A stretch of 64,000 nucleotides of DNA, taken from positions 1 to 64,000 of the forward strand of contig NZ_VFYP01000004.1 in assembly GCF_006443685.1 (NCBI RefSeq). The letters are read 5' to 3'. Position numbers and translations under genes: made by a program. The notes under the pieces were generated by a model. It saw only the letters and a program-made list of their open reading frames with translations, was not told the origin of the DNA and made no database searches. Shown in pieces: positions 317-19,408 of the stretch. How positions within the stretch are numbered: the first letter of the stretch is position 1; the number at the start of each line of letters is the position of its first letter. This DNA comes from Rhizobium glycinendophyticum (GTDB lineage: Bacteria > Pseudomonadota > Alphaproteobacteria > Rhizobiales > Rhizobiaceae).

Positions 317-326
317 GAATAGCTCC

Positions 327-1763: not shown

Positions 1764-1817
1764 GGAGTCTCCCTCTGGCCCTGCCTCATCGAAGCAGGGC
1801 CTTTCAATAGATGGGGA

Positions 1818-2498: not shown

Positions 2499-2570
2499 GA
2501 TCTTGTTCCTTCAAGAGGTGAAGGCACTTCAGGGTGAAGCCGGAAGCGCGGTGATTGGGTAGGGGACGGT

Positions 2571-3341
2571 TCAGCCTTTGGCGGCCATGGATCGGGCGAC
2601 TTCGGCCGCGCTGATGCCTTCAAGCGCCAGGCCATAGCCAGCACCCTCGTCGATGATCCGGCGCAGCTTCTGCGTCAGCGCGATGCGGGTGTAGCGGCTG
2701 GTCAGCGGCGGAAGAGCGGCAATGCCCTCGGCGATCTCATGGGCGCGGGCAAGCAGCCGATCGGCCGGCACAATCTCGTTGACCACGCCCCACTCTTTTG
2801 CCGTCTGAGCATCCAACACCTGGCGAGTCAGGATAAAGTGGCGGCCGCGGATCGAGCCGATCACTTCCGGCCAGAGCAGGTTGACACCATCGCCCGGCAC
2901 GATGCCGAAGTCGAAATGCGGCTTGTCCTGGAAGACGGTTTCCGGCGTGGCCAGAATGATGTCGGTCAGCAGCGCATATTCCGAGTGCAGCAGCACCGGA
3001 CCGTTCAGCGCGGTGATTATCGGAACCTCGATGTCGAGGATATTCATGAGCACCTTCTTGCCCTCGCGCAGGATCTTGTCATAGCCGCGCGGCGAGAAGA
3101 AATCGAAGCCCTCGGGGCTGATTGCATCCATGAAGGCATCGCCGGAGCCGGTGAGGATCACGACGCGATTCTCGGAATCGGAACCAATCTGGTGGAAGAG
3201 CTCGACGAACTGTTCATGGGTATGGCCGTTGAACTGAAGCTTGCCGCCATTGGTGTGGAGCGCGACTTCGAGGACGCCGTTTGGCGAGCGGGTCAGGCGG
3301 GCATTCGGGAAGCTGTTCTTGTAAGTGTCGAAACGGGACAT
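2571..3341 (-). CDS. Enoyl-CoA hydratase/isomerase (crotonase) family protein
   Basis: 256 residues with the crotonase fold pattern. It has an N-terminal strand region (VLEVALHTNGG), an oxyanion-hole region around LTGSGDAF, a second one near ITALNGPVLLHSEYALLTDI, and FGIVPGDGVNLLWPE. The start at 3341 is chosen over a longer frame because TAGGAGGACCCTC precedes this ATG. The family covers hydratases, isomerases, dehalogenases and C-C lyases, and the usual Glu pair of hydratases is not clearly conserved, so the reaction is open. It lies between the GST and peroxiredoxin-like genes in one apparent operon. Confidence 0.85.
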   Translation of the reverse strand: MSRFDTYKNSFPNARLTRSPNGVLEVALHTNGGKLQFNGHTHEQFVELFHQIGSDSENRVVILTGSGDAFMDAISPEGFDFFSPRGYDKILREGKKVLMNILDIEVPIITALNGPVLLHSEYALLTDIILATPETVFQDKPHFDFGIVPGDGVNLLWPEVIGSIRGRHFILTRQVLDAQTAKEWGVVNEIVPADRLLARAHEIAEGIAALPPLTSRYTRIALTQKLRRIIDEGAGYGLALEGISAAEVARSMAAKG

Positions 3342-3390
3342 GAGGGTCCTCCTATGGGTTTGACGCATTTTGAGTGATTTGAGGGGAAAA

Positions 3391-4011
3391 TCAGGCAGCC
3401 GGCACGAGGGCTTCGATGCGGGCAATGGCGCGCTCTACGGCCGGGCGCGCAGCCACGGTCTCGTACCAGCGGGAAAGATTGGAGCGCTCGTCGAGCGTCA
3501 CGGCGGGAAACTGCCGACGCCAGAGCCAGCCGAAATGCGCAATGTCGGCAATGGTGAAGTCGTCGCCGGCCATGAAGGCCTGGTTGGCGAGTTTGTCTTC
3601 GAGAAGACCGAGGATACGGTCGGCCTCGCCCGAGAAACGGGCTTCGGCGATCGGCTGCGGCTCGGGCGAGGAGCGCTTGAAGAAGCCGGCATTGCCAAAA
3701 GCCGGGCTCAGGGCAGAGGCGTGAAAGAAGAGCTGCTCGAAGACGCGGGCGCGGCCTTCGCCATCACTCGGAAGAAGCTTGCCCGTCTTCTCGGCCAGGT
3801 AAACCAGGATGGCGGCGCTTTCCGTAAGCACCAGGGCGTCATCGACAAGCACCGGCACCTTGGCGTTGACGTTGAGCGCCACGAAAGCCGCATCCTTCTG
3901 CTCACCCTTGCGGACATTGACCGGCTTCAGGTCATAAGCGAGGCCCAGTTCCTCCAGCGCGATTGGCACCTTGACGCTGTTGGGGGTGGCAAAGGCGTAA
4001 ACGTCGATCAT
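3391..4011 (-). CDS. Glutathione S-transferase family protein
   Basis: A 206-residue cytosolic GST. The N-terminal thioredoxin-like domain (about 1-80) includes ATPNSVKVPIALEELG and NAKVPVLVDD followed by LTESAAILVYLAE, the glutathione gamma-Glu site. The C-terminal helical domain (about 90-200) has FMAGDDFTIADIAHFGWLWR, the N-capping box. The start at 4011 is preferred because GGAG lies six bases upstream; two earlier in-frame ATGs are possible. It is the first gene of the leftward operon and diverges from lysR. Confidence 0.88.
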   Translation of the reverse strand: MIDVYAFATPNSVKVPIALEELGLAYDLKPVNVRKGEQKDAAFVALNVNAKVPVLVDDALVLTESAAILVYLAEKTGKLLPSDGEGRARVFEQLFFHASALSPAFGNAGFFKRSSPEPQPIAEARFSGEADRILGLLEDKLANQAFMAGDDFTIADIAHFGWLWRRQFPAVTLDERSNLSRWYETVAARPAVERAIARIEALVPAA

Positions 4012-4096
4012 CTTCGTCTCCATCCGATCGTGTTCGTTGGAGAGCGTTATGACCATTCCTCGTCACTTGCTGCAGACGCCTTGTGGCGATAATGCT

Positions 4097-4113
4097 TATT
4101 CCGAAGAGGAATA
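4097..4113. promoter_or_regulatory. Inverted repeat at lysR translation start
   Basis: TATTCC-GAAGA-GGAATA is a perfect 6-base inverted repeat that overlaps the lysR ribosome-binding site. Its place in the divergent lysR-GST gap fits an autoregulatory LysR site. This is a positional inference only. Confidence 0.3.
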
Positions 4114-4117
4114 TGCA

Positions 4118-4993
4118 ATGGACAGACTGCAGGCGATGGCGTCATTCGTGCGGGTGGTGGAAACGGGGTCCTTCTCGCAGGCGGCCCGGCAGATCGGGGT
4201 TGGCCAGCCGGCGATCTCGAAGACGATCGCGCAACTGGAAGATCGTCTTCAGGTACGCCTTCTTATCCGCTCGACACATGGCTTGACGCCCACGGATGCA
4301 GGGATGCGCTTTTACGAAAGGGCCAAAGCCGCGATACATGAAGCGGACGAGGCCGAGCTTGAGGCAAAGGGTGCAGGATCAGGATTGTCGGGACGACTTC
4401 GCGTCTGCGCAGCAACTACCTTTGCGCGGCTGATGGTCATTCCGTACCTGCCGGAGTTTATGGAACGACATCCAGACCTGGACGTCGATATCGTCCTAGA
4501 CGACCGGGTGATCGATCTCGTCTCCGAAGGGATCGATATCGGCCTGCGAATGGGTGAGCTTACGGACTCCTCCGCCGTCGCACGCCGCCTTGCTACCGGT
4601 CGGCGTTCGGTCGTCGCGACGCACGCCTATCTGGAAAAGCACGGCGTTCCGAACGTGCCCGCCGATCTCGCCGCGCATGATGCAGTCGTCTACACCCAGC
4701 TTGGCAGAAGCTGGACCTTCTGCCGGAACGGCACCGAAGCGTCGGTCGCCGTCTCAGGCCGCGTGCAGTTCAGCGCTGCGGAGGGAATACGCGCGGCGGT
4801 AAAAGCTGACATGGGGCTCGCCGTCACCTCCGATTGGATGTTTTGGCCGGAGCTTCAAAGCGGCGAGGTTATCCGCATTCTCGAAGATTGGGAGCTGCCG
4901 CCCATCGATCTTTGGGCCGTGTTCCCGACCGGGCGGCTGGCTAGCGCCAAGGCGCGGGCGTTTGCGGAATTCGTTGAGCAGGTGCTTGCGTGA
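4118..4993 (+). CDS. LysR-family transcriptional regulator
   Basis: 291 residues. The N-terminal winged helix-turn-helix (about 1-60, FVRVVETGSFSQAARQIGVG and LEDRLQVRLLIRST) is followed by a periplasmic-binding-protein-like effector domain (about 90-290) of the DsdA/YafC-type subgroup. The start at 4118 is chosen because the domain begins MDRLQAMASF and AGAGGA lies just upstream; the longer frame adds 27 unrelated residues. It diverges from the GST operon, so control of that operon is likely. The inducer is unknown. Confidence 0.9.
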   Translation: MDRLQAMASFVRVVETGSFSQAARQIGVGQPAISKTIAQLEDRLQVRLLIRSTHGLTPTDAGMRFYERAKAAIHEADEAELEAKGAGSGLSGRLRVCAATTFARLMVIPYLPEFMERHPDLDVDIVLDDRVIDLVSEGIDIGLRMGELTDSSAVARRLATGRRSVVATHAYLEKHGVPNVPADLAAHDAVVYTQLGRSWTFCRNGTEASVAVSGRVQFSAAEGIRAAVKADMGLAVTSDWMFWPELQSGEVIRILEDWELPPIDLWAVFPTGRLASAKARAFAEFVEQVLA

Positions 4994-5027
4994 AATGCCC
5001 GGTCTGTGATCGAACGCAAGAAATTGA

Positions 5028-5336
5028 ACGCTGGCGCCTCACTCCCCGCTCGGTCCGATCGCACTTGCCGCTTGCCTGCAGGTCGATGCGATCAGCTACA
5101 ATGCCTTCATTCAAGAGCAGACACTCGGCATCCACTACAACCAGTCCAATGATGTTCTGGACTACATCGTCAACAGGGACGTCTTCCAATATCTCGAGGG
5201 CTATGCCGCCATCCCACGGGGACTTGGCCTCGGAATAGAGATCGATGAGGCCCATGTGATTGAGCGCGCCAAGGAGGGCCATCGCTGGCGCAACACGATC
5301 TGGCGGCATGCCGACGGCAGTTTCGCAGAGTGGTGA
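5028..5336 (+). pseudogene. C-terminal relic of a galactonate dehydratase-type enolase-superfamily gene
   Basis: An open stretch of about 102 codons with no start codon, preceded in frame by TGA at 5025-5027. It reads LAPHSPLGPIALAACLQVD, then SYNAFIQEQTLGIHYNQ, and ends WRHADGSFAEW. This is the C-terminal signature of D-galactonate dehydratase (DgoD-like) proteins, where the family ends WRH-x-D-x-S-x-AEW. About three quarters of the gene is missing upstream, where the lysR gene ends 35 bases away. The relic suggests a past deletion or rearrangement at this junction. The remaining codons look undecayed, so the event may be recent. Confidence 0.75.
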
Positions 5337-5616
5337 CACCGTCTTGCCGAGTATCCCGGCGCCTTGAAGAGGATCTTCTGTGTCCAGGGATCCCCATTTC
5401 CTTGCTCGCAAGAAGCGGTCAGCAGTGACAGCAAACGGTCTGGCACAGTTTGCGGGCAGTCGCGTGTTGGCTGAGGGGCATACATGCGCTTCGATTTTGA
5501 GGTTGGAGGCTACAGCCGGTCGGCCAGGGCTCCCCCCGGCGTCAAAATAAGTCGCAGCCTCTGGTTGACTTGAAGGAGAACTTCTCTTTCTGTGAGGTGA
5601 AACAAGGGGGATTTCA

Positions 5617-6102
5617 ATGACTTTAAAGCTCTTGGCCTTAGCCGTAGCTGCAGCCGCTATACTCACCGGCTGCCAGACGCAATATCAGGAGATGGGCGCC
5701 ACCGGTGGGGTTACCGCCGCTCCAATAACGAACGATACGTATCGCATCTCCTCGCGAGGAAACGGGTTTACCGACCCTACCACCATCCAGGACTATAGCC
5801 TGTTGAAAGCTGCCGAGGTGACTTTAGCGTCCGGGGGAACACACTTCCTTGTCGTCACCGCAAACGACGCAACAAATCGATCTATCGGCTCGACACCCGG
5901 TACCTTCCAGACCAACGTCTACGGTAATACGGCCTTCACCACATATAACCCTGGCGTGACCTACGACATTGTCAAACCCGGGCAAGACCTGATCGTGCAA
6001 GTCTTGAAACTTCCCGTCGGCACCGCATCACCATCCGGAGCGTTCGATGCGCAACAGGTCTATAACAACATCAGCCCGAGGGTAATCAGGCCCAAGAAAT
6101 AA
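5617..6102 (+). CDS. Lipoprotein of the CC0125/CC1285 type
   Basis: 161 residues with a lipoprotein signal peptide (charged start, hydrophobic stretch, LTGC lipobox with the acylated Cys at about residue 19). The mature part (TYRISSRGNGFTDPTT, then YSLLKAAEVTLASGGTHFLVV) resembles the small alphaproteobacterial lipoprotein family named after Caulobacter CC0125/CC1285, of unknown function. AAGGGGG precedes the ATG. It is expected to be anchored in the outer or inner membrane facing the periplasm. It stands alone, 30 bases before the next frame. Confidence 0.75.
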   Translation: MTLKLLALAVAAAAILTGCQTQYQEMGATGGVTAAPITNDTYRISSRGNGFTDPTTIQDYSLLKAAEVTLASGGTHFLVVTANDATNRSIGSTPGTFQTNVYGNTAFTTYNPGVTYDIVKPGQDLIVQVLKLPVGTASPSGAFDAQQVYNNISPRVIRPKK

Positions 6103-6131
6103 CGGGCCGCAGCGCGGCTGATGGTGATCCG

Positions 6132-6784
6132 GTGCGGAAGATCGCGGCTTGGGTTGGTGTGTTGCTCGTTGTGCTCGTCCTGTTAGGGCGGGAGGACAAC
6201 AAGTCCTCGCCTCCATTTTCTGCCCCACAGCCCGCAGCTGTTTCTGCTGAGCACCCCCCAAAGCCGGTCGCCCCAGAGCCCTCTGCTGTCACAAACCGGC
6301 CCGGGACTGCGGCCGCACGTGCGGAACCAATGTATGTGACTGGCAATGGAGTCGCCTTTCGCGCTGGTCCGAGCATCGAACAGCAGATCATCGATCGCTT
6401 TGACAAGGGACGTGAGGTGACGCCTGTGGGCACAAGTACCGACTGGACTGAGGTCCTCGATCACCTGACGCAACGAATGGGATGGATTGCGACACGCTTT
6501 CTGTCTAATAGCCCGCCAGAACAAGAGGTACCTCGACAGGCCCAGTTACCGCCACAGAAGCAGCCTCCTTCCGCGCCTGCGACTTCTGACGCGACCATCG
6601 TTCAGCGGATCATCGCTCAATCAATCGCAAACTATCCCGGCTCCGCCCATGCCCCTATAGCCGGGATCGTGGAGGCCGGAGATGCGGAAAGCGAAGTGCA
6701 TATTCCAAGCCTGGCGGCTATGCGCCCATCTGCTTTGCCGACGATGTGTCCAGAGATATGATTGGGGCGTTTCGCCAGCAGTGA
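6132..6784 (+). pseudogene. Frameshifted SH3-domain periplasmic/membrane-anchored protein
   Basis: Starts with a signal anchor (MRKIAAWVGVLLVVLVLLG), then a Pro/Ala-rich linker, a bacterial SH3 domain (about residues 68-125: YVTGNGVAFRAGPSIEQQII through GWIATRFLS) and a second linker. The family normally ends with a Cys-rich module. Here that module is present but in the next frame from about 6650: CPYSRDRGGRRCGKRSAYSK followed by PGGYAPICFADD and a stop at 6784. One missing T after 6644 (restoring GSCPCPY) would join the two parts. As read, the protein ends at 6761 with an unrelated tail. Either a real mutation or a sequencing deletion. Confidence 0.7.
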
Positions 6785-7179
6785 CGACTTGCGCCTACTG
6801 GCGAAAGTTTCGTTCTATTTTGCCAAGGGTCGAGACCGATCACTTGTCCGGAGTTGATTTTGCTGGCAAGCCCGCACCGTTTTCGTCGCCCGCTGGTCAT
6901 GCCGGCTCGCTGTCGCTGCCCCGCAGCGGACCCGGCCCACAGGGATCCGCCAATGTGCATAGAGGTTGTAGTCTTTGACCTTGCCCCGCTGAACTAATCC
7001 ATTTTGAAGTAAGCTCTGGCCTATTGAGGGGACCAGAGTATGAAGTGCAACCGTTTCACATATAGAGCCGATTTTCAGGATATCGAAGGTGCAAGATGCA
7101 GGCATGCACACCGGTCTCGGAGCGCTTTTTGGCGATGTTTTGCGCCGATGCTATTGCTTAATCTTCTGACACTCCCGGA
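6785..7179. other. Gene-poor stretch
   Basis: About 395 bases with no frame I can support. Short frames on both strands lack domains and ribosome-binding sites. No repeat or terminator stands out. Confidence 0.4.
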
Positions 7180-7443
7180 TCACTGGACGGAATGTTCTGC
7201 AGCCATAGATTTCGGCAATTCGCGATTTCCAATATCCTGAACAAGCGATGTCAAGGCCATTTCCAGGAGGTATGTCGACATACCCAGGTTCAATTGCTTC
7301 GCGCGTTGGCACACAAATGATACCATCCGACCCAGTGCGAGAACCTCGTCGGAATCGGATTCAGTTTGCGGAAATTCCGCCGTTTCAACCATTGCCATGA
7401 CCGCCCCCGGTTTGATCAGTTCGCCGTGCCAATTCTCTGGCAT
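7180..7443 (-). CDS. Small hypothetical protein downstream of XRE regulator
   Basis: 87 residues of unknown function. After an acidic, disordered-looking start (TESDSDEV) there is a predicted helical segment, MVSFVCQRAKQLNLGMSTYL followed by LEMALTSLVQDIG, with heptad-like hydrophobic spacing. It starts 46 bases after the XRE gene stop on the same strand, so the two are probably co-transcribed. Small helical proteins next to XRE repressors can act as partners or anti-repressors; that is only an analogy here. Confidence 0.5.
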   Translation of the reverse strand: MPENWHGELIKPGAVMAMVETAEFPQTESDSDEVLALGRMVSFVCQRAKQLNLGMSTYLLEMALTSLVQDIGNRELPKSMAAEHSVQ

Positions 7444-7489: not shown

Positions 7490-7918
7490 TTAAACCAGAG
7501 TGGGCGTGTCGTCAGTTTGGGTTTCTCCCGCCGTTGCAAGCGCACAAACGAGTGCAACAATACGCCTTCTTACATTTGCGCTCTTTATCTTTGTGAAAGC
7601 TTGGTTCAGCGCGAATCCTTCGGTTGACGCTGCAAAAGCTTCCAACTCACGACCCTCGCTGCCTCCTGAAGCCTCCTGGTCAGGGCCGAGCAAGCTGTTC
7701 GGGAACAGCGCATTCACCTTGATCCCGAGGATCGAAGCGATTCCCTGAATACGGGAGGCTCCAACGCGGTTGGTGCCCTTTTCATATTTCTGGACCTGCT
7801 GAAACGTTATCCCAAGCCTTTCAGCCAACGCGGTCTGGCTCATGCCAATCATTTTCCGATGTAGGCGAATCTGGGAGCCGACATGCATGTCTATTGGGCT
7901 TGGCGTTTTCGGCTGCAT
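7490..7918 (-). CDS. XRE-family helix-turn-helix regulator
   Basis: 142 residues. A Cro/CI-type helix-turn-helix occupies about residues 10-65 (VGSQIRLHRKMIGMSQTALA, then LGITFQQVQKYEKGTNRVGA), followed by an acidic linker and a C-terminal helical part (FALNQAFTKIKSANVRRRIV). This architecture is common for rhizobial phage-repressor-like regulators. The start at 7918 (MQPKTPSP) is chosen because the longer frame adds a Cys-rich tract unlike the family. The deiminase gene ends 125 bases upstream on the same strand; whether the RiPP-like operon reads into it is unknown. Confidence 0.82.
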   Translation of the reverse strand: MQPKTPSPIDMHVGSQIRLHRKMIGMSQTALAERLGITFQQVQKYEKGTNRVGASRIQGIASILGIKVNALFPNSLLGPDQEASGGSEGRELEAFAASTEGFALNQAFTKIKSANVRRRIVALVCALATAGETQTDDTPTLV

Positions 7919-8043
7919 AAGAAAATCTCCAGATAGTGGGGCACACGCAAAAGGATTGCTCACCCTTACGGTACACTTGAGCAGAACACACCTGCAATAC
8001 AATTTTGGAGAGTTGAAGAAGATCAACCAAGCTCAGCATTGGT

Positions 8044-9228
8044 TCAGCTTGCTTCCTGCTGCAACGGCTCATCACGACGAAGGACTCTCGTAACACAGCG
8101 GATCGCACCATTGCGGCTGGCAAGGCAACTCCATCCCGGAACCGGTATCGGATCAAATCCGAGCCGCCGCCATATGGCGAGGTTGCGGCTATCAAATTCC
8201 TCCAGTGGCTCCCTATCGCCAAACTGCGGCACCCAGACCTGAGGACGATTGCGTTGGGGACGCAGTGCATTTTCGAGGAGCACATTGTTGTAGAGACGCG
8301 GGAGACGCTTGCCCGTATCCGCCACGACTGCCAAGGGCACTGGGTTTCTTTGAACAGCGAAGCCCTGTTCCTCAAGCAAAAGTACCGAGGCATGCAGCTG
8401 CCTTTTCAGCATTTGACAGGCCCTCTCGCCGTCGGGGTCGAACGAGATCGGATCCGCGACCAGAAGCAGCGGACGATCATCGACAAACAGGCCTGTGGCG
8501 GAAACATATTGGTCGACGTGGAATCCGCACTGATGAATGCGATCCTCATGACGGTTGTGCCGCTTCGAAAAATTCGGCTGAAGATGAGACTGCGCACGCA
8601 CTCCCCGAGTGCCGCCTTCCTCACATTCGCGCCCCTGTCCCAAGTCCGCGATACGATAACCGAACAGGCTAGTATCGCGGCCGTCCATCTTCGAAATAGC
8701 CCGCCACAGGCCCCAAGCGTCGAGCGAGCGGTCTCGCCTAAAGCCAGGTGGAACCGTTTGAGAGTACCCGACGAGGCGGAAACCCTGGCCGACGAGCTGG
8801 TTTCCGCCCGGCACGAAGATACCCTCGGACGCGCGACCCATTGCGAGATGTGATGCAATCGCCGAGGCCAGAACATCGTTCGGGCGGGCAAGTACTTCGG
8901 TCCGTTCCCGGCCTTGCGCTCGTTCTGTCCGAATATGGATACGGTCTTGGATCCACGGGCTCCTGATCACACTGACGTCCGACCCCACAGGCACCAGGTT
9001 GGTCTGACAGATCGAGTTCAGTCCATCCAGCCACTGCCTCGCACCCTCGAATGCCATGCGATCGACGAAGATGTGGACGTGCAACTCCGCGGGCAAGGAT
9101 GACAGAAGATTTGAGATTGGGGCGATCAACCTCGCCCCTTCACCAACTGCGCCAATACCAGTCCCCGCGAGGAACACTGTTGGAAGGGCAAGGCCCAGGT
9201 CCGTGATCAGACCACCGCAATCGGCCAT
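8044..9228 (-). CDS. Agmatine deiminase/peptidyl-arginine deiminase-type enzyme (GME superfamily)
   Basis: About 394 residues from the ATG at 9228; the open frame extends farther upstream but overlaps tfuA. Motifs of the guanidino-group modifying superfamily are in order: WIQDR (about 90), GGNQLVG (about 141), HVDQYVSATG (about 236, the His-x-Asp pair), YNNVLLEN, VWVPQFG, and a C-terminal catalytic Cys in NGAIRCVTRV (about 378). The family hydrolyses or transfers guanidino groups through a Cys-amidino intermediate (arginine or agmatine to citrulline or carbamoylputrescine). The closest style is bacterial PAD/agmatine deiminase, but the spacing differs from housekeeping agmatine deiminase. It is the last gene of the YcaO-TfuA operon, 23 bases after tfuA, which suggests action on a peptide product rather than free agmatine (inference). 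Confidence 0.75.
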   Translation of the reverse strand: MADCGGLITDLGLALPTVFLAGTGIGAVGEGARLIAPISNLLSSLPAELHVHIFVDRMAFEGARQWLDGLNSICQTNLVPVGSDVSVIRSPWIQDRIHIRTERAQGRERTEVLARPNDVLASAIASHLAMGRASEGIFVPGGNQLVGQGFRLVGYSQTVPPGFRRDRSLDAWGLWRAISKMDGRDTSLFGYRIADLGQGRECEEGGTRGVRAQSHLQPNFSKRHNRHEDRIHQCGFHVDQYVSATGLFVDDRPLLLVADPISFDPDGERACQMLKRQLHASVLLLEEQGFAVQRNPVPLAVVADTGKRLPRLYNNVLLENALRPQRNRPQVWVPQFGDREPLEEFDSRNLAIWRRLGFDPIPVPGWSCLASRNGAIRCVTRVLRRDEPLQQEAS

Positions 9229-9251
9229 CAGTGTCCGTTCGCAGGCGGAAC

Positions 9252-9965
9252 TCAACGGTTTTCGTCCAGCGATGGCGATCGTTTCATAAGCGCCTGAAAG
9301 AATACTGTATTCTGGAAATTCCAGGCGCTCGGCGCCTGAGGTGTCAGTTCGCCGGTGGCCAAGACATTGAGCAGCTGTTCTGCATCCTGTCTTTTGACAG
9401 AAACGACATTCGACTTCAGGACGTGCAGATGGTCGGCGCCGAGCCCTGCCGATGACACGACGGACCGCCACATCCTTTGGCTGAAGTGAAAACGTCTAGC
9501 GGCATCCTGAAGAGCTGCAATCTCGTCGGCATGAAAGATGTTTGAGAGAGAGGCAAGGGTCGCTTGTGCATCGACCAGCGCGATCGACAAGGGACGGTAG
9601 TCTAGTTCGGCGGGTCCATGTGTCACGGCGACATCCGCATCGGAAAACCGCTCTCCATCGCGATATGCTTCGAATATGCGTCCCACACCGATCATTCCAA
9701 AGCTGACACATTCCGCCGCTCTCAATGCACCCATGCTGGCGCCACCCCAGACGCTCACCCCTTTTGACAAAGCATAGAGTATTTCCTTGTGCCAGACCGA
9801 GGCACAATCACCGTAAAGGCCATCAATGAGCCCAATGGCCGTGGCGCCGTGATGCACAGCTGCAATAAGATCGCCCGAACTCGCGGGCGGCCGAACGTCG
9901 AGATCAAGTCCCGACAGGTCCAAGCCGAAAATCGATGGGCCAGCGAAAACGACTGGCCTCATCAC
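9252..9965 (-). CDS. TfuA-like protein, YcaO partner
   Basis: 237 residues of the TfuA family: VVFAGPSIF, DVRPPASSGDLI, AIGLIDGLYGDCASVWHKEI, GGASMGALRAAE, IFEAYRDGERF and VTHGPAELDY are all hallmark segments. TfuA proteins work with a YcaO enzyme in peptide thioamidation, probably by supplying or delivering sulfur, and take their name from the trifolitoxin locus of Rhizobium. The start is GTG at 9965 or ATG at 9962; either overlaps the ycaO stop, so translation is coupled. Length and motifs are complete. Confidence 0.92.
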   Translation of the reverse strand: MMRPVVFAGPSIFGLDLSGLDLDVRPPASSGDLIAAVHHGATAIGLIDGLYGDCASVWHKEILYALSKGVSVWGGASMGALRAAECVSFGMIGVGRIFEAYRDGERFSDADVAVTHGPAELDYRPLSIALVDAQATLASLSNIFHADEIAALQDAARRFHFSQRMWRSVVSSAGLGADHLHVLKSNVVSVKRQDAEQLLNVLATGELTPQAPSAWNFQNTVFFQALMKRSPSLDENR

Positions 9966-11185
9966 GACAGGCGACCGGCCACCAGCCGCTCCAGCATTTG
10001 TGGCGTCATCTGCTGGATCCCACCACGTACCGCCTTAAGGCCACTAGCAAGCACCCGTACAACATGAAGGCCCTTGACGCCGGTCTCCAGCGAAAAGACA
10101 TATAGGTCCGCAACTCCAGCCTCAAACAGATGGTCCGCAAGCAGCACCCAATTCGGTTGACAGCCATCGGCGAGCAGATCGAGACTAAAGGCTTTGAGCT
10201 CGGCCTCACGACCCGTTCGCCGTATTGCAAAAGCCGCGTTGTCTCGCAGGAAGCGATGCGGCGAAAGATCATCCCGGGCACCACTGATGTCAGTCAATCG
10301 CGACTGAACGGCCTCAAGCAGGGCGGCGAGTGCTGCGTCATAGGTCGCCAGACGACATGCCACTCCAGCTGATCTGCGCATTGTCGGACCATCCGGTGTC
10401 ATGACTGGACGATCAAGGCTTGCCATCACCACCGGGACACCGAGGTCGGTCGTCAGATCCTGGAACTCGACCACAATTTTCCGATCAAGAAGATGCTCCA
10501 CCAGCGCGTCCAGTGATGGGTGCACACCATGTTTGAGCAAAACAGGCCGTGGTACGACTGTCCGTGTCTCGAAGGTATCAATCAGATAACAGGCATCGTT
10601 CTCGACAAGCTCGAGCAGCGCATGAAGAACGACCCGGTCACGATCGACACCCGCAGCCAGACCCTCCGAGCTCATATGAAACGTGCTCCGATCCCAAGGC
10701 ATGTCAGCGCGAAAATCCATGCCGATCAGTTCGAAAGGTGCGAAAACATCTGTGTTTGTCCGAATAGAAACACCCCTCACCCAAGCCCGTTCTCGGCCCG
10801 GATCAAGAGCGCCAATGTCAGTGCGACCGACAGAGGCAAACGGGACGAGGCGGTGGCCGAGCGCAAGCATCTGCTCGACCGACCCGAACGCGCAGACGTG
10901 TCTTTGGGTATCTTCGGCAACCGCACCTTCGATTGCCTCCATGATCGCTGAATTCCGAGCCTGATCAACCGTAACCCCCTTGCCCTGCGACACCGAGAGC
11001 CCGCGGGAATTTGGCCGAACAGCAAACCAGACCGGTATGCCGAGACAATCGAGATCAGTGATGTCGCCCACCCGCGTGATCCCGAACCGCCTGAGGAGTT
11101 CAAGATCACACGTAGTTTGCGGGTCGCGCAGACCTTCCAAGCCCGCTACGGATCGCGACGGGCACTCCGCCACCATACGTTTCAT
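9962..11185 (-). CDS. YcaO-type cyclodehydratase/thioamidation enzyme
   Basis: 407 residues of the TfuA-associated YcaO class. The ATP/Mg-binding residues are all visible: SAIMEAIEG (79-87, Glu83 and Glu86), LLELVEND (190-197, Glu192 and Glu195) and LEAVQSRLTDISGARDD (from about 290; Glu291, Gln294, Arg296). The enzyme phosphorylates a peptide amide oxygen so that a nucleophile (Cys/Ser/Thr side chain, or sulfide with TfuA) can attack, giving azolines or thioamides. The C-terminus lacks the PxPxP tail typical of azoline-forming YcaOs, which fits the thioamide branch. The upstream 143-residue gene stops three bases before this ATG. No E1-like or ocin-ThiF recognition domain is fused, so substrate recognition must come from elsewhere. 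Confidence 0.93.
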   Translation of the reverse strand: MKRMVAECPSRSVAGLEGLRDPQTTCDLELLRRFGITRVGDITDLDCLGIPVWFAVRPNSRGLSVSQGKGVTVDQARNSAIMEAIEGAVAEDTQRHVCAFGSVEQMLALGHRLVPFASVGRTDIGALDPGRERAWVRGVSIRTNTDVFAPFELIGMDFRADMPWDRSTFHMSSEGLAAGVDRDRVVLHALLELVENDACYLIDTFETRTVVPRPVLLKHGVHPSLDALVEHLLDRKIVVEFQDLTTDLGVPVVMASLDRPVMTPDGPTMRRSAGVACRLATYDAALAALLEAVQSRLTDISGARDDLSPHRFLRDNAAFAIRRTGREAELKAFSLDLLADGCQPNWVLLADHLFEAGVADLYVFSLETGVKGLHVVRVLASGLKAVRGGIQQMTPQMLERLVAGRLS

Positions 11186-11188
11186 CGG

Positions 11189-11620
11189 TCAGGGCGCTGT
11201 GTTCGGCGTATCGAACAGGATTGCTTCGAACAGTTCACCGGCTGAGGCTCCGGAGGGACCGACAGCCTGCAGGGCACCCTCAAGCGGTGACTGGGACTTG
11301 CGATTGAAGTCCCATCCGGCATCGGTGACCTCCCCGACGAAGGCAAAGTCCGCTTCGGAAACGACCGCGCGCCCGGCAATCAGCGCCTCGATGCCCTGGA
11401 TCTGAACCTCATCGAGCTCGCTATCGGGTTGACCGTCCTGACTGAGCAGCATCGATTTTGCCGCAGCAGCAACACGCGCATAACCATCAACGCCCGGATG
11501 TTCCGCCTCATAGGCCGTGATCGCCTTGTGCGAAACGCTTGCGACCCGTAGCGGTGTTGTTCTGACAAACAACACGCCGGAACCTCGTTTTCCAATAATG
11601 TAGAATGCTGAATTCGTCAT
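11189..11620 (-). CDS. 143-residue protein of unknown family; candidate substrate or partner of YcaO-TfuA
   Basis: No family recognised. It begins with a strand-rich part (SAFYIIGKRGSGVLFVRTTP), continues with a helix-prone acidic middle (about 45-95), and ends in a Gly/Ser/Ala-rich part (AVGPSGASAGELFEAILFD). It contains no cysteine, so if it is the substrate, modification would be backbone thioamidation or Ser/Thr cyclisation. It is wedged between the regulator (stop 9 bases upstream) and ycaO (ATG 3 bases downstream), with a GGGGA ribosome-binding site. That position is where precursor or leader-binding genes often lie. It is long for a precursor peptide, so it could instead be an adaptor. 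Confidence 0.6.
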   Translation of the reverse strand: MTNSAFYIIGKRGSGVLFVRTTPLRVASVSHKAITAYEAEHPGVDGYARVAAAAKSMLLSQDGQPDSELDEVQIQGIEALIAGRAVVSEADFAFVGEVTDAGWDFNRKSQSPLEGALQAVGPSGASAGELFEAILFDTPNTAP

Positions 11621-11629
11621 GGCTGTCCC

Positions 11630-13696
11630 CTACCTGATCCCTGCCAAGCGCAGTGCTTCGTAAAAATTTTCGTTTGCCGCGGGATCGCGATCCGGCGACA
11701 GGGCTGCAATCTCTCTGGCACTCATGCCAGGATAATTCTCCTGCAAGCGCCAGGCGCAAAGCCGTGCGCTTTCCAGATCGCCGTTGAGTGCGTGGCTCGC
11801 GGTCAGGACGCGCAGTGCCGGCTCATCGTCCTTCATGTGGCCGCAGAGCTCGACCGCGCCTGAATAGTCCTGACGATCGAAGGCGATACTGGCGCCTGCC
11901 CACCAATAGATATCCGGCGCCAGGGGGTTAAGATCGATCGCATGCTGGAACTTCAGCCACGCCGTCTCGCGATCCCCGAAATGCGCCAGTGCATCGGCAT
12001 GTTGGAGTAAAAGGTCCGCCGAGTGAGGCGCCAGCGCCTCTGCCTCAAAAAACGTTTGCGCAGATCGATCGAAATCGCGCTGGTAGAGGGCAACCACCGC
12101 AGTCATCCAGTGACCCGCAGCAAGGGCGGGATCGCTGTCGATGGCTGCCTCGGCCTCTGCCTTTGCCCGATGGAGCAGGTGAGGATCGTTCCCCCCGAGC
12201 ATCAACCATTCCAGGTGCAAAGTCTGGGCTATCCGGGCCCTGGCCACGGCCAGACCGTAATCGAGACCGATCGCCTTGCGGAACATGGAACGCGCGCGTC
12301 GAACGAGCGGCAGATCGCATTTGCCGCTTAAAAGTTGCTGTCCTTCCAGAAGGGCCCTGTAAGCGTGATCATCCAGATGTCGTCCGGGCTCGATCTGAAG
12401 ACGTTCAATCTCTCGCGCAAGTGCACTGGCAACCTGTTTTGACAGCAGACGGAATGCCGCATGAAGCTGGTCGTGGTGCAGCTCGACCTCTAGGGACCAT
12501 ACGATTTCGCCCACACCTTCCGCGATGAGAGAGACCGAGAGGCGCGTATTGTCGAGCACACGCGCCGCAACACAAAAGTCTGCCCTCAGAGCGGCAAATC
12601 GTTCATCGCGATCACCAGCGTTGATCGCAAAGGTGCTGTGAGTGGCCAGGACCGAGAAGGTACGGTAACGGACGAGGCTGTTTGCAACATCTTCGACGAA
12701 GGCGTTGAAAACAGCGGAGGCAGGGTTGCCATCGACACGCACGGGCCTGAGAAATGCAACCCTCTGCTTGCTGCGTTGCAGGGGCTCGGACACGAGATCA
12801 CGTGCTACTTTGCTGTCACCAATCTGCAGGCACGTAGTCTGAACTCTGCGTAAGAGTGCGACCGTCTCTTGGTCCGGCGCTCGCCTTTCGATACGGAGGT
12901 GAATTTGAAGTCCCTCGAAAAGCCGGTCGCATTCTTCAAGCGCCCCGATGCGTGCGTAAGCTGCTATGGCAGCCCTGTGGGTCTCTTCTCGTGAAGGATC
13001 AAGGCGCAGCGCGACCTCGGTCAGTTTTGCGATATCCGTGATACGGGCGCGACCGAAGCGGGTGAGTTCTTCGAGCACATGCACATAGGTGTGGAAGAAA
13101 AGATCTCTCATTCGCCGGCGTTCAGAAAGAAGCCAGAGATGAAACTGGTCGTGCCCAGTGTCCAGTCCTTGGAGCAGTTCGCCACTGACCGACAGCAGTG
13201 CTTGCACACGTTCGGTGACCGCCTCGGCGTTCAATCCCTCCAGGAAACGCCACAAATCGGAGCGCCTGGCCAGCGTACCGGCCCTCAGATAATGTCCGTC
13301 GCTGTCGATGAAACGGCCATCGTCTCTACACAGCTTCTGCAGCCGCAGCAGCAATTGACGCAGGTTCCCGAAGACGCGCTTGTCACCTCCACTCTCCCAC
13401 AGCAGAGACGCTGCGGCGTGACGGGTCAGGACCTGATGAGGCGCCAAGACGAGCGCTGTGACGAGGATAAATCCTTTTGCCGGAAGACGCTCATCATCCG
13501 CATTACCGCGTTGCGGTATGCCAAAGAGCCGGAGTTGTGTCTCGCTTGAGTCTTCGAACACGGAGTCGTCCCCATTTCTCCCATCTAACAATGAGAGGTT
13601 GAAAATTGGAAGACGTCTTAGCTGCCATTTGACGTTGGTGTGACGCAGAAAGCTGCAATGCATGATCGCATTCGCAATTCCACTGCAACGTAACAT
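11630..13696 (-). CDS. BTAD/TPR transcriptional regulator of the YcaO-TfuA operon
   Basis: Up to 688 residues. In order: a winged-helix segment (about 50-140, LRLFGIPQRGNADDERLP through LASSLLW-like and NLRQLLLRLQK), a bacterial transcriptional activation domain (about 150-285, ARITDIAKLTEVALRLDPSR), a TolB-like N-terminal-type domain (about 310-430, VAFLRPVRVDGNPASAVFNA), and a TPR region (about 450-680, AIDSDPALAAGHWMTAVVAL and AIDLNPLAPDIYWWAG). This is the SARP/CadC-like layout seen in alphaproteobacteria. The start is uncertain: 13696 or the ATG at 13663. It leads the five-gene unit and probably controls it. Confidence 0.8.
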   Translation of the reverse strand: MLRCSGIANAIMHCSFLRHTNVKWQLRRLPIFNLSLLDGRNGDDSVFEDSSETQLRLFGIPQRGNADDERLPAKGFILVTALVLAPHQVLTRHAAASLLWESGGDKRVFGNLRQLLLRLQKLCRDDGRFIDSDGHYLRAGTLARRSDLWRFLEGLNAEAVTERVQALLSVSGELLQGLDTGHDQFHLWLLSERRRMRDLFFHTYVHVLEELTRFGRARITDIAKLTEVALRLDPSREETHRAAIAAYARIGALEECDRLFEGLQIHLRIERRAPDQETVALLRRVQTTCLQIGDSKVARDLVSEPLQRSKQRVAFLRPVRVDGNPASAVFNAFVEDVANSLVRYRTFSVLATHSTFAINAGDRDERFAALRADFCVAARVLDNTRLSVSLIAEGVGEIVWSLEVELHHDQLHAAFRLLSKQVASALAREIERLQIEPGRHLDDHAYRALLEGQQLLSGKCDLPLVRRARSMFRKAIGLDYGLAVARARIAQTLHLEWLMLGGNDPHLLHRAKAEAEAAIDSDPALAAGHWMTAVVALYQRDFDRSAQTFFEAEALAPHSADLLLQHADALAHFGDRETAWLKFQHAIDLNPLAPDIYWWAGASIAFDRQDYSGAVELCGHMKDDEPALRVLTASHALNGDLESARLCAWRLQENYPGMSAREIAALSPDRDPAANENFYEALRLAGIR

Positions 13697-13720
13697 CGCT
13701 TGCGGCCGAGGAACTCTAGC

Positions 13721-14206
13721 ATGATTGCCTTTATGAGCCAGTATATGATGTTCGATGGCCGCATAGAGCCCTACCAGCGAGCCGATGACGTTGGCTATGC
13801 GATCAGCGAGTTTCTCTGGTTCGAGGAGCGACCTTTCTACCCGGCATCAGCGCTGGCGCAGGCCAAGGTTGCTCAGGTCAATCTGTGCTCCTTACAGGGC
13901 AGCGAAGACAATCAGGACAACTGCGACCTGGTCTTCCAGATGCCCAAGGCCGACGGAGGGCATTTCTACGAGATTGTCATGCGTTCGGATAATGGAACGG
14001 CCTATGGCGGCTGGGCATGGGGTGAAACGCTCGAATGCTTGGACCAAATTGCGAACGGGTATCGCGTACTTCGAACCCAAATACACGAGACCCAAGCGTC
14101 GTTCGAATATTCAAGCAAATCTCGGCGCTATGGGCCGACATCGAAGCTCCTCATGGACAAGAAAGCGCTTCGGCCCGGTTGGCAAAGTGCAATGATCAAA
14201 GGTTGA
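13721..14206 (+). CDS. Hypothetical protein
   Basis: 161 residues, no family recognised. It has mixed alpha/beta character with conserved-looking stretches such as YAISEFLWFEERPFYPASAL and GGWAWGETLECLDQIANGYR, and no signal peptide or membrane segment. The start at 13721 is chosen because GAGGAA lies eight bases upstream; a TTG at 13700 would add seven residues. It diverges from the BTAD regulator with only 25-60 bases between them, so their promoters must overlap. A link to the YcaO operon is possible but unsupported. Confidence 0.6.
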   Translation: MIAFMSQYMMFDGRIEPYQRADDVGYAISEFLWFEERPFYPASALAQAKVAQVNLCSLQGSEDNQDNCDLVFQMPKADGGHFYEIVMRSDNGTAYGGWAWGETLECLDQIANGYRVLRTQIHETQASFEYSSKSRRYGPTSKLLMDKKALRPGWQSAMIKG

Positions 14207-14639: not shown

Positions 14640-17600
14640 TCACTGGAAATTACGCGCTTTGATCTTGAGCCGGTCGATATGCAAGTCTCGGATAAAGATA
14701 TCGCGAGGTGCCGGCGGAGGCGCGCGCTCCCTCGTATCGCCTCCTCCGGCGGACCCATGGGCAAACTCGTCACCACGACCAGTTGTGAGCTTAAACTCCG
14801 TGTCTCTATCTGCAAGCCCTGAAAGGTCTGAGGACAAGTCGAAGAGTTGCTGTGCCACGAGATGCACGACATCACCTTCACGCTGGATGCGCCCGTTGAT
14901 GGCCATCAAGGATGCTCCCAGTACGACACGCCGCCGCTTCTCGAAGAGTTTCGGCCAGACGACAATGTTTGCCGGTCCGGTTTCGTCCTCAATGGTGATG
15001 AACATCACGCCTTTTGCAGAGCCCGGCTTTTGTCGAACGAGCACGAGGCCCGCGGTCATGAGCCAGCGACCATCTCGCGCCGTCATCGCCTCCTCGCAAG
15101 TGGCGATGCTGCGCTTGGCCAGGTCCGCTCGCAAAAAAGCGATCGGATGGTCCCGAAGCGTAAGGCCGGTATGACCATAATCTTCGACGACGTTGTGACC
15201 CTCGGTCATTTGCCGGAGCTCAACATCGGGTTCGACCTGCTCGGCAATCGTTCTCATCTCGCGCTCAGCTGCTGCCGCGAAGAGCGGCAAGGGCTCATCG
15301 CGCAAGGCCTTGATGGCCCAGAGCGCATCGCGTCGCTCAAGCCTCATTGACGGATGCAAAGCATCGGCCTCAGCAAGTTGGACCAGCGAAGCCGCAGGCA
15401 CCCCCGATCGTCGCCATATGTCATCCACGCTCGCGAAGGCCCCATCCATCCGGGCCGCGATAATCCGTGCTGCATCCGCAACCGCAAGGCCCTTTACCAG
15501 ACGCATGCCCAGCCGCACCGCATGCCGACCGTTGTCGCCGCTCTCCTCCAAAGTACAATCCCAACGGGATCGATTGATACAGACGGGCAACACCGCGACG
15601 CCATGCGCACGAGCATCACCAACGATCTGGGCGGGTGCGTAAAACCCCATGGGCTGACTGTTGAGAAGCGCTGCGCAAAACACATCCGGGAAATGGCACT
15701 TCACATAGTTGGAGGCATAGGCGATCAGCGCAAAGGAGGCAGCGTGGGATTCCGGGAAGCCATAGGACCCGAAACCTTCCAGCTGAGAGAAGGTCTTTTC
15801 GGCAAATTCAGACGTGTAGCCGTTCCTTACCATGCCGGAGACGAGCTTTTCCTTGAAGCGGCTGACGCCCCCGGTGAACTTGAAGGTCGCCATCGATTTG
15901 CGAAGCTGATCGGCCTCGCCGCCGGTAAAGCCGGCACAGACCATGGCAACGCGCATTGCCGATTCCTGAAACAGGGGAACGCCGAGGGTCTTGCCCAAAA
16001 CCGCCTCCAGCTCAGGTGTCGGATACTCGACCTTCTCCTTGCCCTCCCGCCTGCGCAGGTAAGGATGCACCATGTCGCCCTGGATTGGCCCCGGCCGCAC
16101 GATTGCCACCTGGACAACGAGGTCATAAAATGTCCGGGGCTTCAGGCGCGGCAACATCGCCATCTGTGCGCGGCTCTCGATCTGAAACGTCCCCAGTGTA
16201 TCGGCGCGACGGATCATCGCGTAGGTCGCCGGATCTTCTTGCGTGATCTTTGCCAGATCCAGATCATCATTCTTATGCGCGCGGATCAGGTCGAAAGCCT
16301 TGGACATGCATGTGAGCATGCCAAGTGCCAAGACGTCGACCTTCATGAATTTCAGCGCCTCGACGTCATCCTTGTCCCATTCGATGATCTGCCGATCCGC
16401 CATGGATGCCGGCTCGATGGGAACGAGGTCATCAAGGCGATCATGGGTGAGGACAAAGCCGCCCGGATGCTGGCCTAGATGGCGTGGTGCGCCCATCAGT
16501 TGTTGCGCAAGCTGCAGTGTTAGCACCAGGCGTCGATCATCGGGATTGAGATTGAGCTCTCGCACATTGCGGTCGCTCACGTCTTCCGACCAGGACCACA
16601 TGCCCGACGACAAGGCCTTGATCAGATCCTCCGGCAGACCGAGCGCCTTGCCGACATCGCGGATGGCGCCTTTCGCCCGGTAGCGCGTCACGGTCGCGCA
16701 AAGAGCCGCCTTGTCCTTTCCATAGGTCCGGTAGATCCACTGAATGACCTCCTCGCGCCGCTCGTGTTCGAAGTCGACGTCGATGTCGGGAGGTTCATCG
16801 CGTTCCTGGCTGACGAAACGCTCGAACAGCAGATCGTTGGTTTCGGGGTCGATGGAGGTGACGCCGAGGATGTAACAAACGGCGGAGTTCGCAGCCGATC
16901 CCCTCCCCTGACACAGAATGCCCTGGCTTCGCGCGAACCGCACAATCGAAAACACAGTCAGGAAGTAGGGTGCATATTTCATCTTCTCGATCAGCTCGAG
17001 TTCGTGCCTGATGATCTGCAGCGTTTTAGGCGGCAAGCCTTCGGGGTAGCGGTCGGGCACGCATTGCCAGACATAGTGCTCCAGGGATTGCTGGGCAGTC
17101 TTTCCCGGAACGATCGCCTCCTCGGGATACTGATAGGTGAGCTCCTCCAAGGAAAACTTGCAGCGATCGACAATCTCTATGGTTCGACGCAAGGCTTCCG
17201 GATATCGAGGAAAGAGGCGCTCCATTTCTTCCGGAGGCTTCAAATAACGATCTGCATGACGTTCGCGCTCGAAGCCGACGGTATCGATCGTCGTATTATG
17301 GCGGATGCAGGTGACAATATCCTGGAGCTGGCGCCTGGCTGGCTCATGAAACAGCACGTCATTGGTGACAACCGTCTTCACGTTGAAGAGGGTCGCCAGC
17401 TTCGACAATTCGTGCAGTCGCAGTTGATCATTGGGTCGGCGCCTGAGACATAGCGACACATAGGCCCGGTCGCCAAAGATTTCTGCCAGTTTTCGAAGCT
17501 GGACCGCGCAGGTGTCATCGGCAAGATCGGGGACGAGAATAGCAAGCAGGCCATCACAAGACTGCGCGACATCGGCAAGGGTCAGGATGCAGTTGTCCTT

Positions 17601-17900
17601 GCCCCCACGGCTTTTGCCTAGCGTGATCAGCCGGGTGAGCCTCGAATAGGCGGCCCGGTCCGTCGGATAGACAAGGATCGACATGCCGTCGACTAAGTCG
17701 AGACGACAGCCAACCACCAGACGAACCCCTGTGGAACGCGATGCCTCAAGCGCACGCACGATGCCGGCAAGCGAATTGCGATCCACGACACCGATAGCGT
17801 CGATGCCAAGATCGCGTGCGGTGGCAAACAGGTCCTCCGCTGATGATGCGCCGCGCAGGAACGAAAAGTGGGTGGTGACCTGAAGCTCGGCATATCTCAT
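14640..17900 (-). CDS. dnaE2: Error-prone DNA polymerase DnaE2 (ImuC)
   Basis: 1086 residues, the normal size. It has an N-terminal PHP domain ([20 protein letters not shown]), the C-family polymerase core with catalytic aspartates in [32 protein letters not shown], an HhH region and a C-terminal OB-fold region ([20 protein letters not shown]). It performs translesion synthesis in the ImuA-ImuB-DnaE2 mutasome and drives damage-induced mutagenesis. The start at 17900 is chosen over an upstream ATG because it overlaps the imuB stop as ATGA and the family begins (M)[18 protein letters not shown]. It is SOS-controlled through the LexA box upstream of imuA. Confidence 0.96.
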
Positions 17901-19408
17901 GCAAAGATCCCCTGGACAAACCACTTGTGCGAGCCGGTGACGCCATCGACCCCGTCACCGGCGCGAAAGATCCAGAGACGTTCGCCGCCCTCGTCCTCGA
18001 TGAGGAAGTAATCCCGAACGGCAGCCCATTCGGAGGTGCGCTGCCACCACTCGCCGAAAATCCGCTCGGGGCCGTCGGCGCGTCTCACTTTCCGGCGTTT
18101 TCCGCGCCACGTGACGGCAACTGGTGGATGGTCGGGCAAAAGCGCGATCACTTCGATCAATTCCGGATAGGCCAGCAGGCGGACCGGACGCGGCCAGTGA
18201 TGAGACCAGGAGACGGTGACGTCGTCTGCCACAGCCGCGATACGCTGGACGCTACGTTCCGGCACGTCAGAGGCGACGGGAGCCAGCCGGTAAACCCGTT
18301 GCCCTCGATTGCCGAAGATATCGATGAGCGGTGTGATGTCCGGGACCTGGTCGTCAACAAGATCAGACGATCTCTGCGCTTCATCCAGCGGTTCTGCGAG
18401 GATGGCGATGAGCGTCAGTTTTTCGATGCCAAAGCCCGGATCAATCTTTTCCGTCCGGTCCCGGAACAGCTTGGTCAACCACGCCACGTCACGCGCTGGC
18501 TTGGCGGTCCCCGCCCGGATAGCCTGGTGGGTATTGTCGACCCGGTCGACGATGAGATCGGCTCGGCGAACTCCCAACCCCTTTCTCTGCAACGCATCGC
18601 AGAGCTGCACGACCAGGCGGCCGACATATTTGTTGATGGTTTCAGCGGCCCCGATTGGTTCCTGGAATGTGCGACTAACCTCAATCCATTCCGGGCTGCG
18701 AACAGGTTCGATCGGCTCGCTGAGGCGCCCAAAGGTCTGGTCGAGGCGACGCGCGATTTCGGGGCCGAAGCGAAGCGTCAGCGGTGCCCGCGCCGTAGCT
18801 GACAACTCGCCGATGGTGCGAAAGCCAAGGGTTTGTAGATCCCTGACGGTATTTTGAGGCAGACGCAGCAAGGAAATCGGCAAGTTCTCGACCGCGCGCA
18901 CGGTTTCGCCAGCCGGCACGATGACAGTGGTCCGGTCGATCGCACGTGCACAGGCATGCGCGGCCCCCCAGGTATCTGCAATCGCGACACGCGCCGTCAG
19001 GCCCCTTGCAAGGAAGCGATTGGCGATGCCGGTCAGCATGAGACGTTCTCCGCCCCGAAGATGATCGGCACCATCCGTATCCATGACGATACCGTCAGAC
19101 CCATCGACAGCAACGATTGGCGAATACTGGGCTAGTGCCCACAAGCTGATGCGCTCAAGGGCGGCTGCGTCCGCGGCCGGATCGGCATCGATCATCATCA
19201 GCCCCTGAAACAGGGCCTGGGCCTTTGCCGCTGGCATGCCGACACGCACACCAACTGCCTTTGCAGCCGCATCCGCCGCCGACACCCAGCGCTTTGAGCC
19301 GCTCTTTGCGATCACGGCAATTGCCTGCTCAGCCGGAATGGCGGGATCGGTGCGACGAATGCGATCCGTCGAAAGATCTGGAAGGTAGATCGATACGACC
19401 CTGGTCAT
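17897..19408 (-). CDS. imuB: ImuB, Y-family polymerase-like mutasome scaffold
   Basis: 503 residues. A Y-family polymerase fold without the catalytic carboxylates ([14 protein letters not shown] in place of the first Asp motif), then [19 protein letters not shown], a HhH region near [20 protein letters not shown], a little-finger-like domain and a variable C-terminus ending [10 protein letters not shown]. ImuB does not polymerise; it binds the beta clamp and bridges ImuA and DnaE2. The start at 19408 ([12 protein letters not shown]) matches the family, and the coding region overlaps imuA by 80 bases, so translation is coupled. It also overlaps dnaE2 by four bases. Confidence 0.94.

What the first reader, a model, noticed from the sequence alone, without database searches (positions are those of the whole stretch)
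8044..13696. TfuA-YcaO operon with a guanidino-modifying enzyme: candidate new RiPP or protein-thioamidation system
Seen: five minus-strand genes with gaps of 23 bases or less or overlaps: BTAD/TPR regulator, 143-residue unknown, YcaO with all ATP-site residues, TfuA, and a PAD/agmatine-deiminase-type enzyme. Known: TfuA with YcaO installs backbone thioamides (McrA thioglycine, thioamide RiPPs), and trifolitoxin is a rhizobial case. Inference: the product could combine a thioamide or azoline with a deiminated (citrulline-like) arginine. I know of no described system with this set. No McbC-type dehydrogenase, transporter or protease is present, so the product may stay in the cell or be a protein modification.
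Basis: partly seen in the sequence, partly recalled or inferred. Interest (0 to 1): 0.87.

Follow-up and report, generated by a model that had tools for sequence, protein, structure and literature searches.

The report
Thioamide peptide operon with arginine-modifying enzyme
A conserved bacterial gene set appears to make a small protein-derived compound by adding sulfur to its backbone and altering one fixed arginine, and the overlooked 143-residue gene in it looks like the raw material.

The parts
8044..9255 (-). GME (agmatine-deiminase/PAD-fold enzyme), 403 aa, TTG start overlapping the TfuA stop; catalytic D104, H246, D248, C387 (protein numbering)
9252..9965 (-). TfuA (sulfur-transfer partner of YcaO), 237 aa
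   Evidence: PF07812 134 bits; only solved match 6xp8, TfuA domain-containing protein, E 2e-29; only TfuA match in the genome
9962..11185 (-). YcaO (ATP-dependent backbone-activating enzyme), 407 aa, no PxPxP-type C terminus
   Evidence: PF02624 170 bits; solved matches MJ1094 6pe3 and YcaO 6ci7; only YcaO match in the genome; C terminus read
11189..11620 (-). U143, proposed precursor (or small protein substrate), 143 aa: moderately structured N-terminal part, disordered C-terminal part
11270..11353 (-). core block of U143, residues 90-117 (ADFAFVGEVTDAGWDFNRKSQSPLEGAL); the unit that is tandemly repeated in some relatives
11300..11317 (-). core motif GWDFNR (residues 102-107); Arg107 codon at 11300-11302
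   Evidence: Arg in 74 of 74 distinct units; coordinates
11630..13696 (-). BTAD/TPR transcriptional regulator, 688 aa; first gene of the operon
   Evidence: PF03704; upstream of U143 in 30 of 31 loci of named records, the other (L021) cut by its contig end
13700..14206 (+). U168, divergently transcribed conserved gene of unknown family
   Evidence: in 30 of 32 loci compared (29 of 31 named-record loci plus the window); no Pfam, NCBIfam or PADLOC family
7490..8026 (-). XRE-type HTH regulator downstream of the GME (ATG of the conserved part about 7918)
   Evidence: PF01381; in 24 of 32 loci compared and in L099-L101
7180..7443 (-). small conserved ORF (87 aa) after the HTH gene; possible last gene of the conserved block
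   Evidence: in 22 of 32 loci compared

Best explanation
The operon makes a RiPP (or a modified small protein) from U143. Shown by comparison: U143, TfuA and the GME go together wherever the U143 profile hit, and its C-terminal block is a unit that some relatives repeat 2, 4 or 5 times. Inferred: the N-terminal ~88 residues act as leader and docking domain. YcaO with ATP activates a backbone amide in the W-x2-N-R-x4-P core, and TfuA supplies sulfide from a thiocarboxylated ThiS-like carrier, giving a thioamide (perhaps at or near Asn-Arg). The GME then acts on the invariant Arg through Cys387, most likely hydrolysing the guanidine to citrulline. No dedicated protease or exporter is conserved, so leader removal and export, if any, use host enzymes. 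BTAD/TPR and XRE proteins control expression. Likelihoods: U143 is the YcaO-TfuA substrate 0.85; the GME acts on the core Arg 0.7; the product is citrulline 0.5.
Confidence: 0.62

Rival explanations
1. U143 is not the precursor but an accessory or adaptor protein, and YcaO-TfuA-GME modify another cellular protein (as in McrA or uL16 thioamidation).
For: No conserved protease or exporter; U143 conserved over its whole length; protein thioamidation by YcaO is known (PMC5589413, start of abstract in the listing; PMC13063428, passages).
Against: Tandem core units with copy-number variation, tandem U143 paralogues in L023, L026 and L032, and a disordered C-terminal part are what a substrate, not an adaptor, would show; the scattered distribution (6 of 247 genomes) does not fit modification of a core protein.
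Confidence: 0.13
2. The GME acts on a small guanidine metabolite (free Arg or agmatine) or transfers an amidino group rather than modifying the U143 Arg; the peptide is only thioamidated.
For: The same superfamily includes agmatine deiminases and amidinotransferases; the thiovarsolin amidinotransferase VarS was dispensable for thiovarsolins (PMC6511847, section 19).
Confidence: 0.22
3. YcaO makes an azoline or other backbone change instead of a thioamide.
For: YcaO enzymes also make azolines and amidines (recalled).
Against: TfuA is directly coupled in 31 of 31 loci; the best NCBIfam match of YcaO is the McrA-glycine thioamidation model, below its cut-off; no dehydrogenase among the 8 proteins scanned; no Cys, Ser or Thr is invariant in the 22-residue core unit.
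Confidence: 0.07

Closest known systems
Thiovarsolin cluster, var (PMC6511847)
   Same: Precursor with none to five imperfect core repeats, YcaO (VarY), TfuA (VarT), a guanidine-superfamily enzyme (amidinotransferase VarS) in some clusters, Arg in the core; transporter VarP not needed (passages and section 19 read)
   Different: Actinobacteria; APR/GPR core; heme-oxygenase-like VarO and ATP-grasp VarL; VarS dispensable and called an amidinotransferase, here an agmatine-deiminase-like enzyme beside every U143 hit
std cluster of Streptomyces thermodiastaticus (PMC13174530)
   Same: YcaO-TfuA thioamidates Asn of a conserved SNKEWQE core; the next residue (Lys) is then converted to homocitrulline; similar 'thioamide then urea side chain' logic (passages)
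   Different: Carbamoyltransferase/peptidase and MNIO instead of a GME; MFS permease; Lys not Arg
Citrulassin lasso peptides with peptidylarginine deiminase (PMC12971885)
   Same: Arg of a RiPP core deiminated to citrulline (passages)
   Different: Lasso peptides; PAD encoded outside the cluster; sequence relation of that PAD to this GME not tested
McrA thioglycine YcaO-TfuA (PMC5589413, start of abstract only; TIGR03266, NF033432)
   Same: Best NCBIfam matches of the two proteins (146.6 and 156.5 bits)
   Different: Below both curated cut-offs (365 and 235.2); target there is an archaeal enzyme, not a co-encoded precursor
Agmatine deiminase / Porphyromonas-type PAD fold (PF04371; PDB 1xkn, 6nib, 5ak7)
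   Same: Fold and catalytic Asp, His-x-Asp, Cys
   Different: 12-19% identity in the best structural alignments, no Pfam match, W-x-Q-D instead of W-x-R-D, RC instead of HC

Membership tests
YcaO-TfuA (thioamidated) RiPP cluster | adjacent YcaO and TfuA genes over family cut-offs | tested here: met
   170.5 vs 25.7 and 134.3 vs 30 bits
YcaO-TfuA (thioamidated) RiPP cluster | co-encoded precursor gene with leader and core | tested here: met
   U143 in 31 of 31 loci of named records; core units 1, 2, 4 or 5 per protein. By anatomy only; not biochemically shown
YcaO-TfuA (thioamidated) RiPP cluster | thioamide on the product | not testable with these tools
   needs mass spectrometry
Agmatine deiminase / PAD_porph (PF04371) | match over the Pfam gathering score | tested here: not met
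   no match for the window protein; 1 of 28 relatives at E 0.2
Guanidino-group modifying enzyme (GME) superfamily | fold of the deiminases | tested here: met
Guanidino-group modifying enzyme (GME) superfamily | catalytic Asp, His-x-Asp, Cys | tested here: met
   D104, H246, D248, C387 invariant in 15 diverse members and aligned to WCRD/HID/HC of PF04371 proteins; their catalytic role is recalled
Guanidino-group modifying enzyme (GME) superfamily | activity on a guanidine, product citrulline | not testable with these tools
   enzyme assay needed
Thiovarsolin family | APR/GPR core repeats | tested here: not met
   core is W-x2-N-R-x4-P; APR/GPR is from PMC6511847
Thiovarsolin family | heme-oxygenase-like gene in the cluster | tested here: not met
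   none of the 8 proteins scanned (operon and three flanking genes) matches one in Pfam
McrA-glycine thioamidation proteins | scores over TIGR03266 and NF033432 cut-offs | tested here: not met
Citrulassin-type peptidylarginine deiminase | homology to the citrulassin PAD | not tested
   that sequence was not fetched

The most novel reading that the evidence does not exclude
A new RiPP family of Alphaproteobacteria in which one operon installs a backbone thioamide and converts the nearby invariant core Arg to citrulline (or another Arg-derived residue), from a protein-sized precursor whose core number evolves by repeat expansion, with the product retained in the cell as a regulatory ligand for the linked BTAD/TPR and XRE regulators.
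Probability: 0.35. Interest if true: 0.87.

Novelty: new variant of a known kind. Interest (0 to 1): 0.74.

Why it matters
It names a precursor, a core motif and the residue to look at for a gene-cluster family of Agrobacterium, Rhizobium and relatives with no product known to me; a 2021 survey counts Rhizobium and Agrobacterium among the dominant proteobacterial YcaO-TfuA cluster families (PMC8120280, section 11), and these loci may be among them. If right, it would be the first YcaO-TfuA pathway I know of with an in-cluster arginine deiminase, would join thioamide and citrulline chemistry in one peptide, and gives a ready three-enzyme test. It also suggests that a YcaO-TfuA substrate may be a protein-sized precursor that RiPP finders tuned to short peptides could miss.

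Tried and rejected
Rejected: (1) GME as the housekeeping agmatine deiminase: a separate protein of that family is on contig C8. (2) Operon peculiar to this genome: contradicted. (3) Defence system: no PADLOC model for the GME, TfuA, YcaO, U143, BTAD or U168 (the HTH protein matches several models, over what looks like their HTH part). (4) Conserved exporter or protease: among ORF clusters present in 19 or more of 32 loci only the genes named in 'parts' remain; the other large clusters lie over these genes on the other strand or frame (judged by position). That test used ORFs of 80 aa or more within about 10 kb, so small or fast-evolving genes can be missed. An ABC ATP-binding cluster appears in 18 loci but mixes unrelated transporters (by eye). 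(5) U143 fold: best Foldseek E is 1.4; one chance-level PDB sequence match, E 0.43. (6) TRF sees the L026 array (111-base unit) but not the L023 array. (7) A first regex for core units had wrong spacing and found one unit; the corrected one is. (8) The GME profile finds no PDB sequence at E <= 10.

Dropped before the counts and limits: 102 hits became 96 after removing start variants of the same ORF; 4 of the 96 gave no unit: P0096 (one residue shorter, still GWDFNR), P0124 and P0125 (short at the N terminus, motif present but before the position cut), P0128 (C terminus different, motif lost). The regex demanded W, Y or L at motif position 13 but not Arg or Pro. Four later units (L087, L099-L101, read by eye) also have W, R and P but are not in the 74. 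The TfuA tree used 30 of 87 TfuA places, those given loci by the tool (the best-scoring), so it is not an even sample. In G097 and G113 the YcaO between TfuA and U143 was not checked separately. The E-value is for one comparison of two profiles.

Full report
OBSERVATION. The window holds five minus-strand genes, 13696 to 8044: BTAD/TPR regulator (688 aa), U143 (143 aa), YcaO (407 aa), TfuA (237 aa) and a GME-type protein. Junctions are 9 and 3 bases apart, then 4-base overlaps, with a TTG start of the GME at 9255. Pfam confirms BTAD, YcaO and TfuA over cut-off; U143 and the GME match no Pfam or NCBIfam family. YcaO and TfuA are the only matches to their families in this 4.84-Mb genome. The solved-structure matches are two YcaOs, MJ1094 (6pe3) and 6ci7, and a TfuA-domain protein (6xp8, E 2e-29).

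THE OPERON IS A CONSERVED UNIT. The search for related loci with the GME alignment gave 31 loci in named records (137 stretches matched a pattern, 34 encode a relative); such a scan finds close relatives only. All 31 have U143, YcaO, TfuA and GME in that order on one strand (U143 of L032 at 30% identity). With the window included (32 loci), ORF clustering found BTAD in 31 (L021 is cut by its contig end), U168 in 30, the XRE regulator in 24 and a small ORF in 22, and no conserved transporter or protease. In an even draw of 247 genomes of the family the GME profile hits 6, the precursor profile hits the same 6, and TfuA has 87 places in 70 genomes; all 6 GMEs lie beside TfuA, and the other 81 TfuA places have none beside them. 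In 397 genomes of the order 7 have a GME match. Of these, G000, G599, G487 and G256 have BTAD-YcaO-TfuA-GME; G615 has a BTAD end, YcaO and TfuA with a GME end in opposite orientation at a contig end; G408 has no YcaO in 19 kb; G271 is a GME fragment at a contig end. In 385 genomes of the class the precursor profile hits 4: this genome and three of one genus outside the order, and those three carry the full BTAD-U143-YcaO-TfuA-GME-XRE set. 35 of 37 GME-linked TfuAs form one clade (100/99), apart from 30 other same-family TfuAs; L088 and L091 fall outside it, in an unresolved part, so the tree as drawn needs 3 label changes and a single origin of the link is neither shown nor ruled out. The operon is accessory: the two other same-genus genomes drawn lack it. 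YcaO, TfuA and GME with the gene before and after them lie on a 256-kb plasmid typed conjugative in Rhizobium daejeonense, and the GME lies on a 448-kb plasmid in Neorhizobium sp. NCHU2750.

THE 143-RESIDUE GENE IS PROBABLY THE PRECURSOR. In Rhizobium straminoryzae (L023) and Rhizobium sp. CSW-27 (L026) a second U143 copy has a homologous N-terminal part followed by 5 and 4 units of the type DIAMVGGVxxxGWDxNRxIxTPxxDVMxAL, spaced 47 and then 37 residues. Database relatives with near-identical leaders have 5, 4, 4 (the L026 protein) and 2 units. Twenty thousand shuffles of the tail of P0130 never gave more than one GWDxNR, against 5 observed. Mesorhizobium albiziae (L032) has two tandem single-core copies. 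In AlphaFold2 the first 50 residues are modelled moderately (block means 75-83), while residues 104-143 are below 50; the whole model is weak (58). A leader with a variable-number core is the anatomy of multi-core RiPP precursors, and the thiovarsolin precursors are a YcaO-TfuA example, varying from no repeat to five (PMC6511847, section 19 and passages).

CORE. Over 96 distinct precursor proteins, 107 units and 74 distinct unit sequences, Arg at motif position 17 is present in 74 of 74, Pro at 22 in 73, Trp at 13 in 62 (Tyr 10, Leu 2) and Asn at 16 in 60. No Cys, Ser or Thr is invariant, which speaks against azolines. Against a universal motif: the U143-like ORFs of L088 and L091 (both family f11) have a leader-like start but lack it (by eye).

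MECHANISM. Inferred from the enzyme families: YcaO activates a backbone amide with ATP; TfuA releases sulfide from a thiocarboxylated ThiS-like carrier (two ThiS-family genes are in the genome; the carrier role is stated in PMC13063428, passage); the result is a thioamide in or next to the W-x2-N-R core. The GME then hydrolyses the guanidine of the invariant Arg. The std pathway gives a parallel: YcaO-TfuA thioamidates Asn and the next residue, Lys, becomes homocitrulline (PMC13174530, passages). Independent context for GME relatives in peptide maturation: in G271 the gene beside the GME fragment is an NHLM HlyD protein (257 vs cut-off 156), followed by a C39-peptidase ABC exporter (917 vs 853) and a second ABC subunit (690, just below 709). 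What the product does is open; the linked BTAD and XRE regulators fit a regulated or signalling product, but that is a guess.

NOVELTY. Literature searches with YcaO/TfuA/thioamide, YcaO/TfuA/deiminase (one paper, the std cluster), RiPP/citrulline/arginine deiminase/precursor peptide, YcaO/Agrobacterium/precursor peptide/TfuA, YcaO/amidinotransferase/TfuA and thioamid/RiPP/Rhizobi/YcaO from 2019 listed, by titles and abstract starts, no described system with this set. The 2021 survey PMC8120280 (sections 11-13 and passages read) counts Rhizobium and Agrobacterium clusters among its dominant proteobacterial families; its main text has no word beginning with deiminase, amidinotransferase or agmatine. 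Its supplementary figures were not open to me and may show these loci. Work outside the open-licence library was not searched. Because YcaO-TfuA RiPPs, repeat precursors and a guanidine-superfamily enzyme in one cluster are already known from thiovarsolin, I call this a new variant of a known kind.

Noticed in passing
13700-14206 (+): U168, a divergently transcribed gene next to BTAD, conserved in 30 of 32 loci, with no known family; possibly an immunity, sensor or target protein of the system.
   Followed up: partly
7490-8026 and 7180-7443 (-): XRE regulator and a small 87-aa ORF follow the GME in 24 and 22 of 32 loci; the XRE gene also follows it outside the order (L099-L101).
   Followed up: partly
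14640-20081 (-): ORFs that look like a DnaE2-ImuB-ImuA mutagenesis cassette lie next to the operon (names recalled from sequence, no family search run).
   Followed up: no
L090 (G271), 124-7109: A GME relative cut by the contig end sits beside an NHLM bacteriocin export set (HlyD and C39 ABC over cut-off, second ABC and cyclic-nucleotide-binding protein below): a possible second kind of RiPP cluster with this enzyme.
   Followed up: partly
L033 (Paenibacillus polymyxa M1 plasmid pPPM1a), 8758-11896: A distant GME relative (23% identity; PAD_porph E 0.0014, below cut-off) is followed by a DNA/RNA non-specific endonuclease gene, with no YcaO annotated in the 19-kb stretch; a different use of the same enzyme family.
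   Followed up: no
L089 (G408), 8136-10095: GME relative (501-aa ORF) followed by a 133-aa ORF without known family, no YcaO profile match in 19 kb.
   Followed up: no
L088 12161-12589 (-), L091 293-589 (+): In family f11 the U143 position holds ORFs with a similar start and a shared GVSLAxxAxxL stretch instead of the W-x2-N-R-x4-P core (by eye): a likely second core type.
   Followed up: partly
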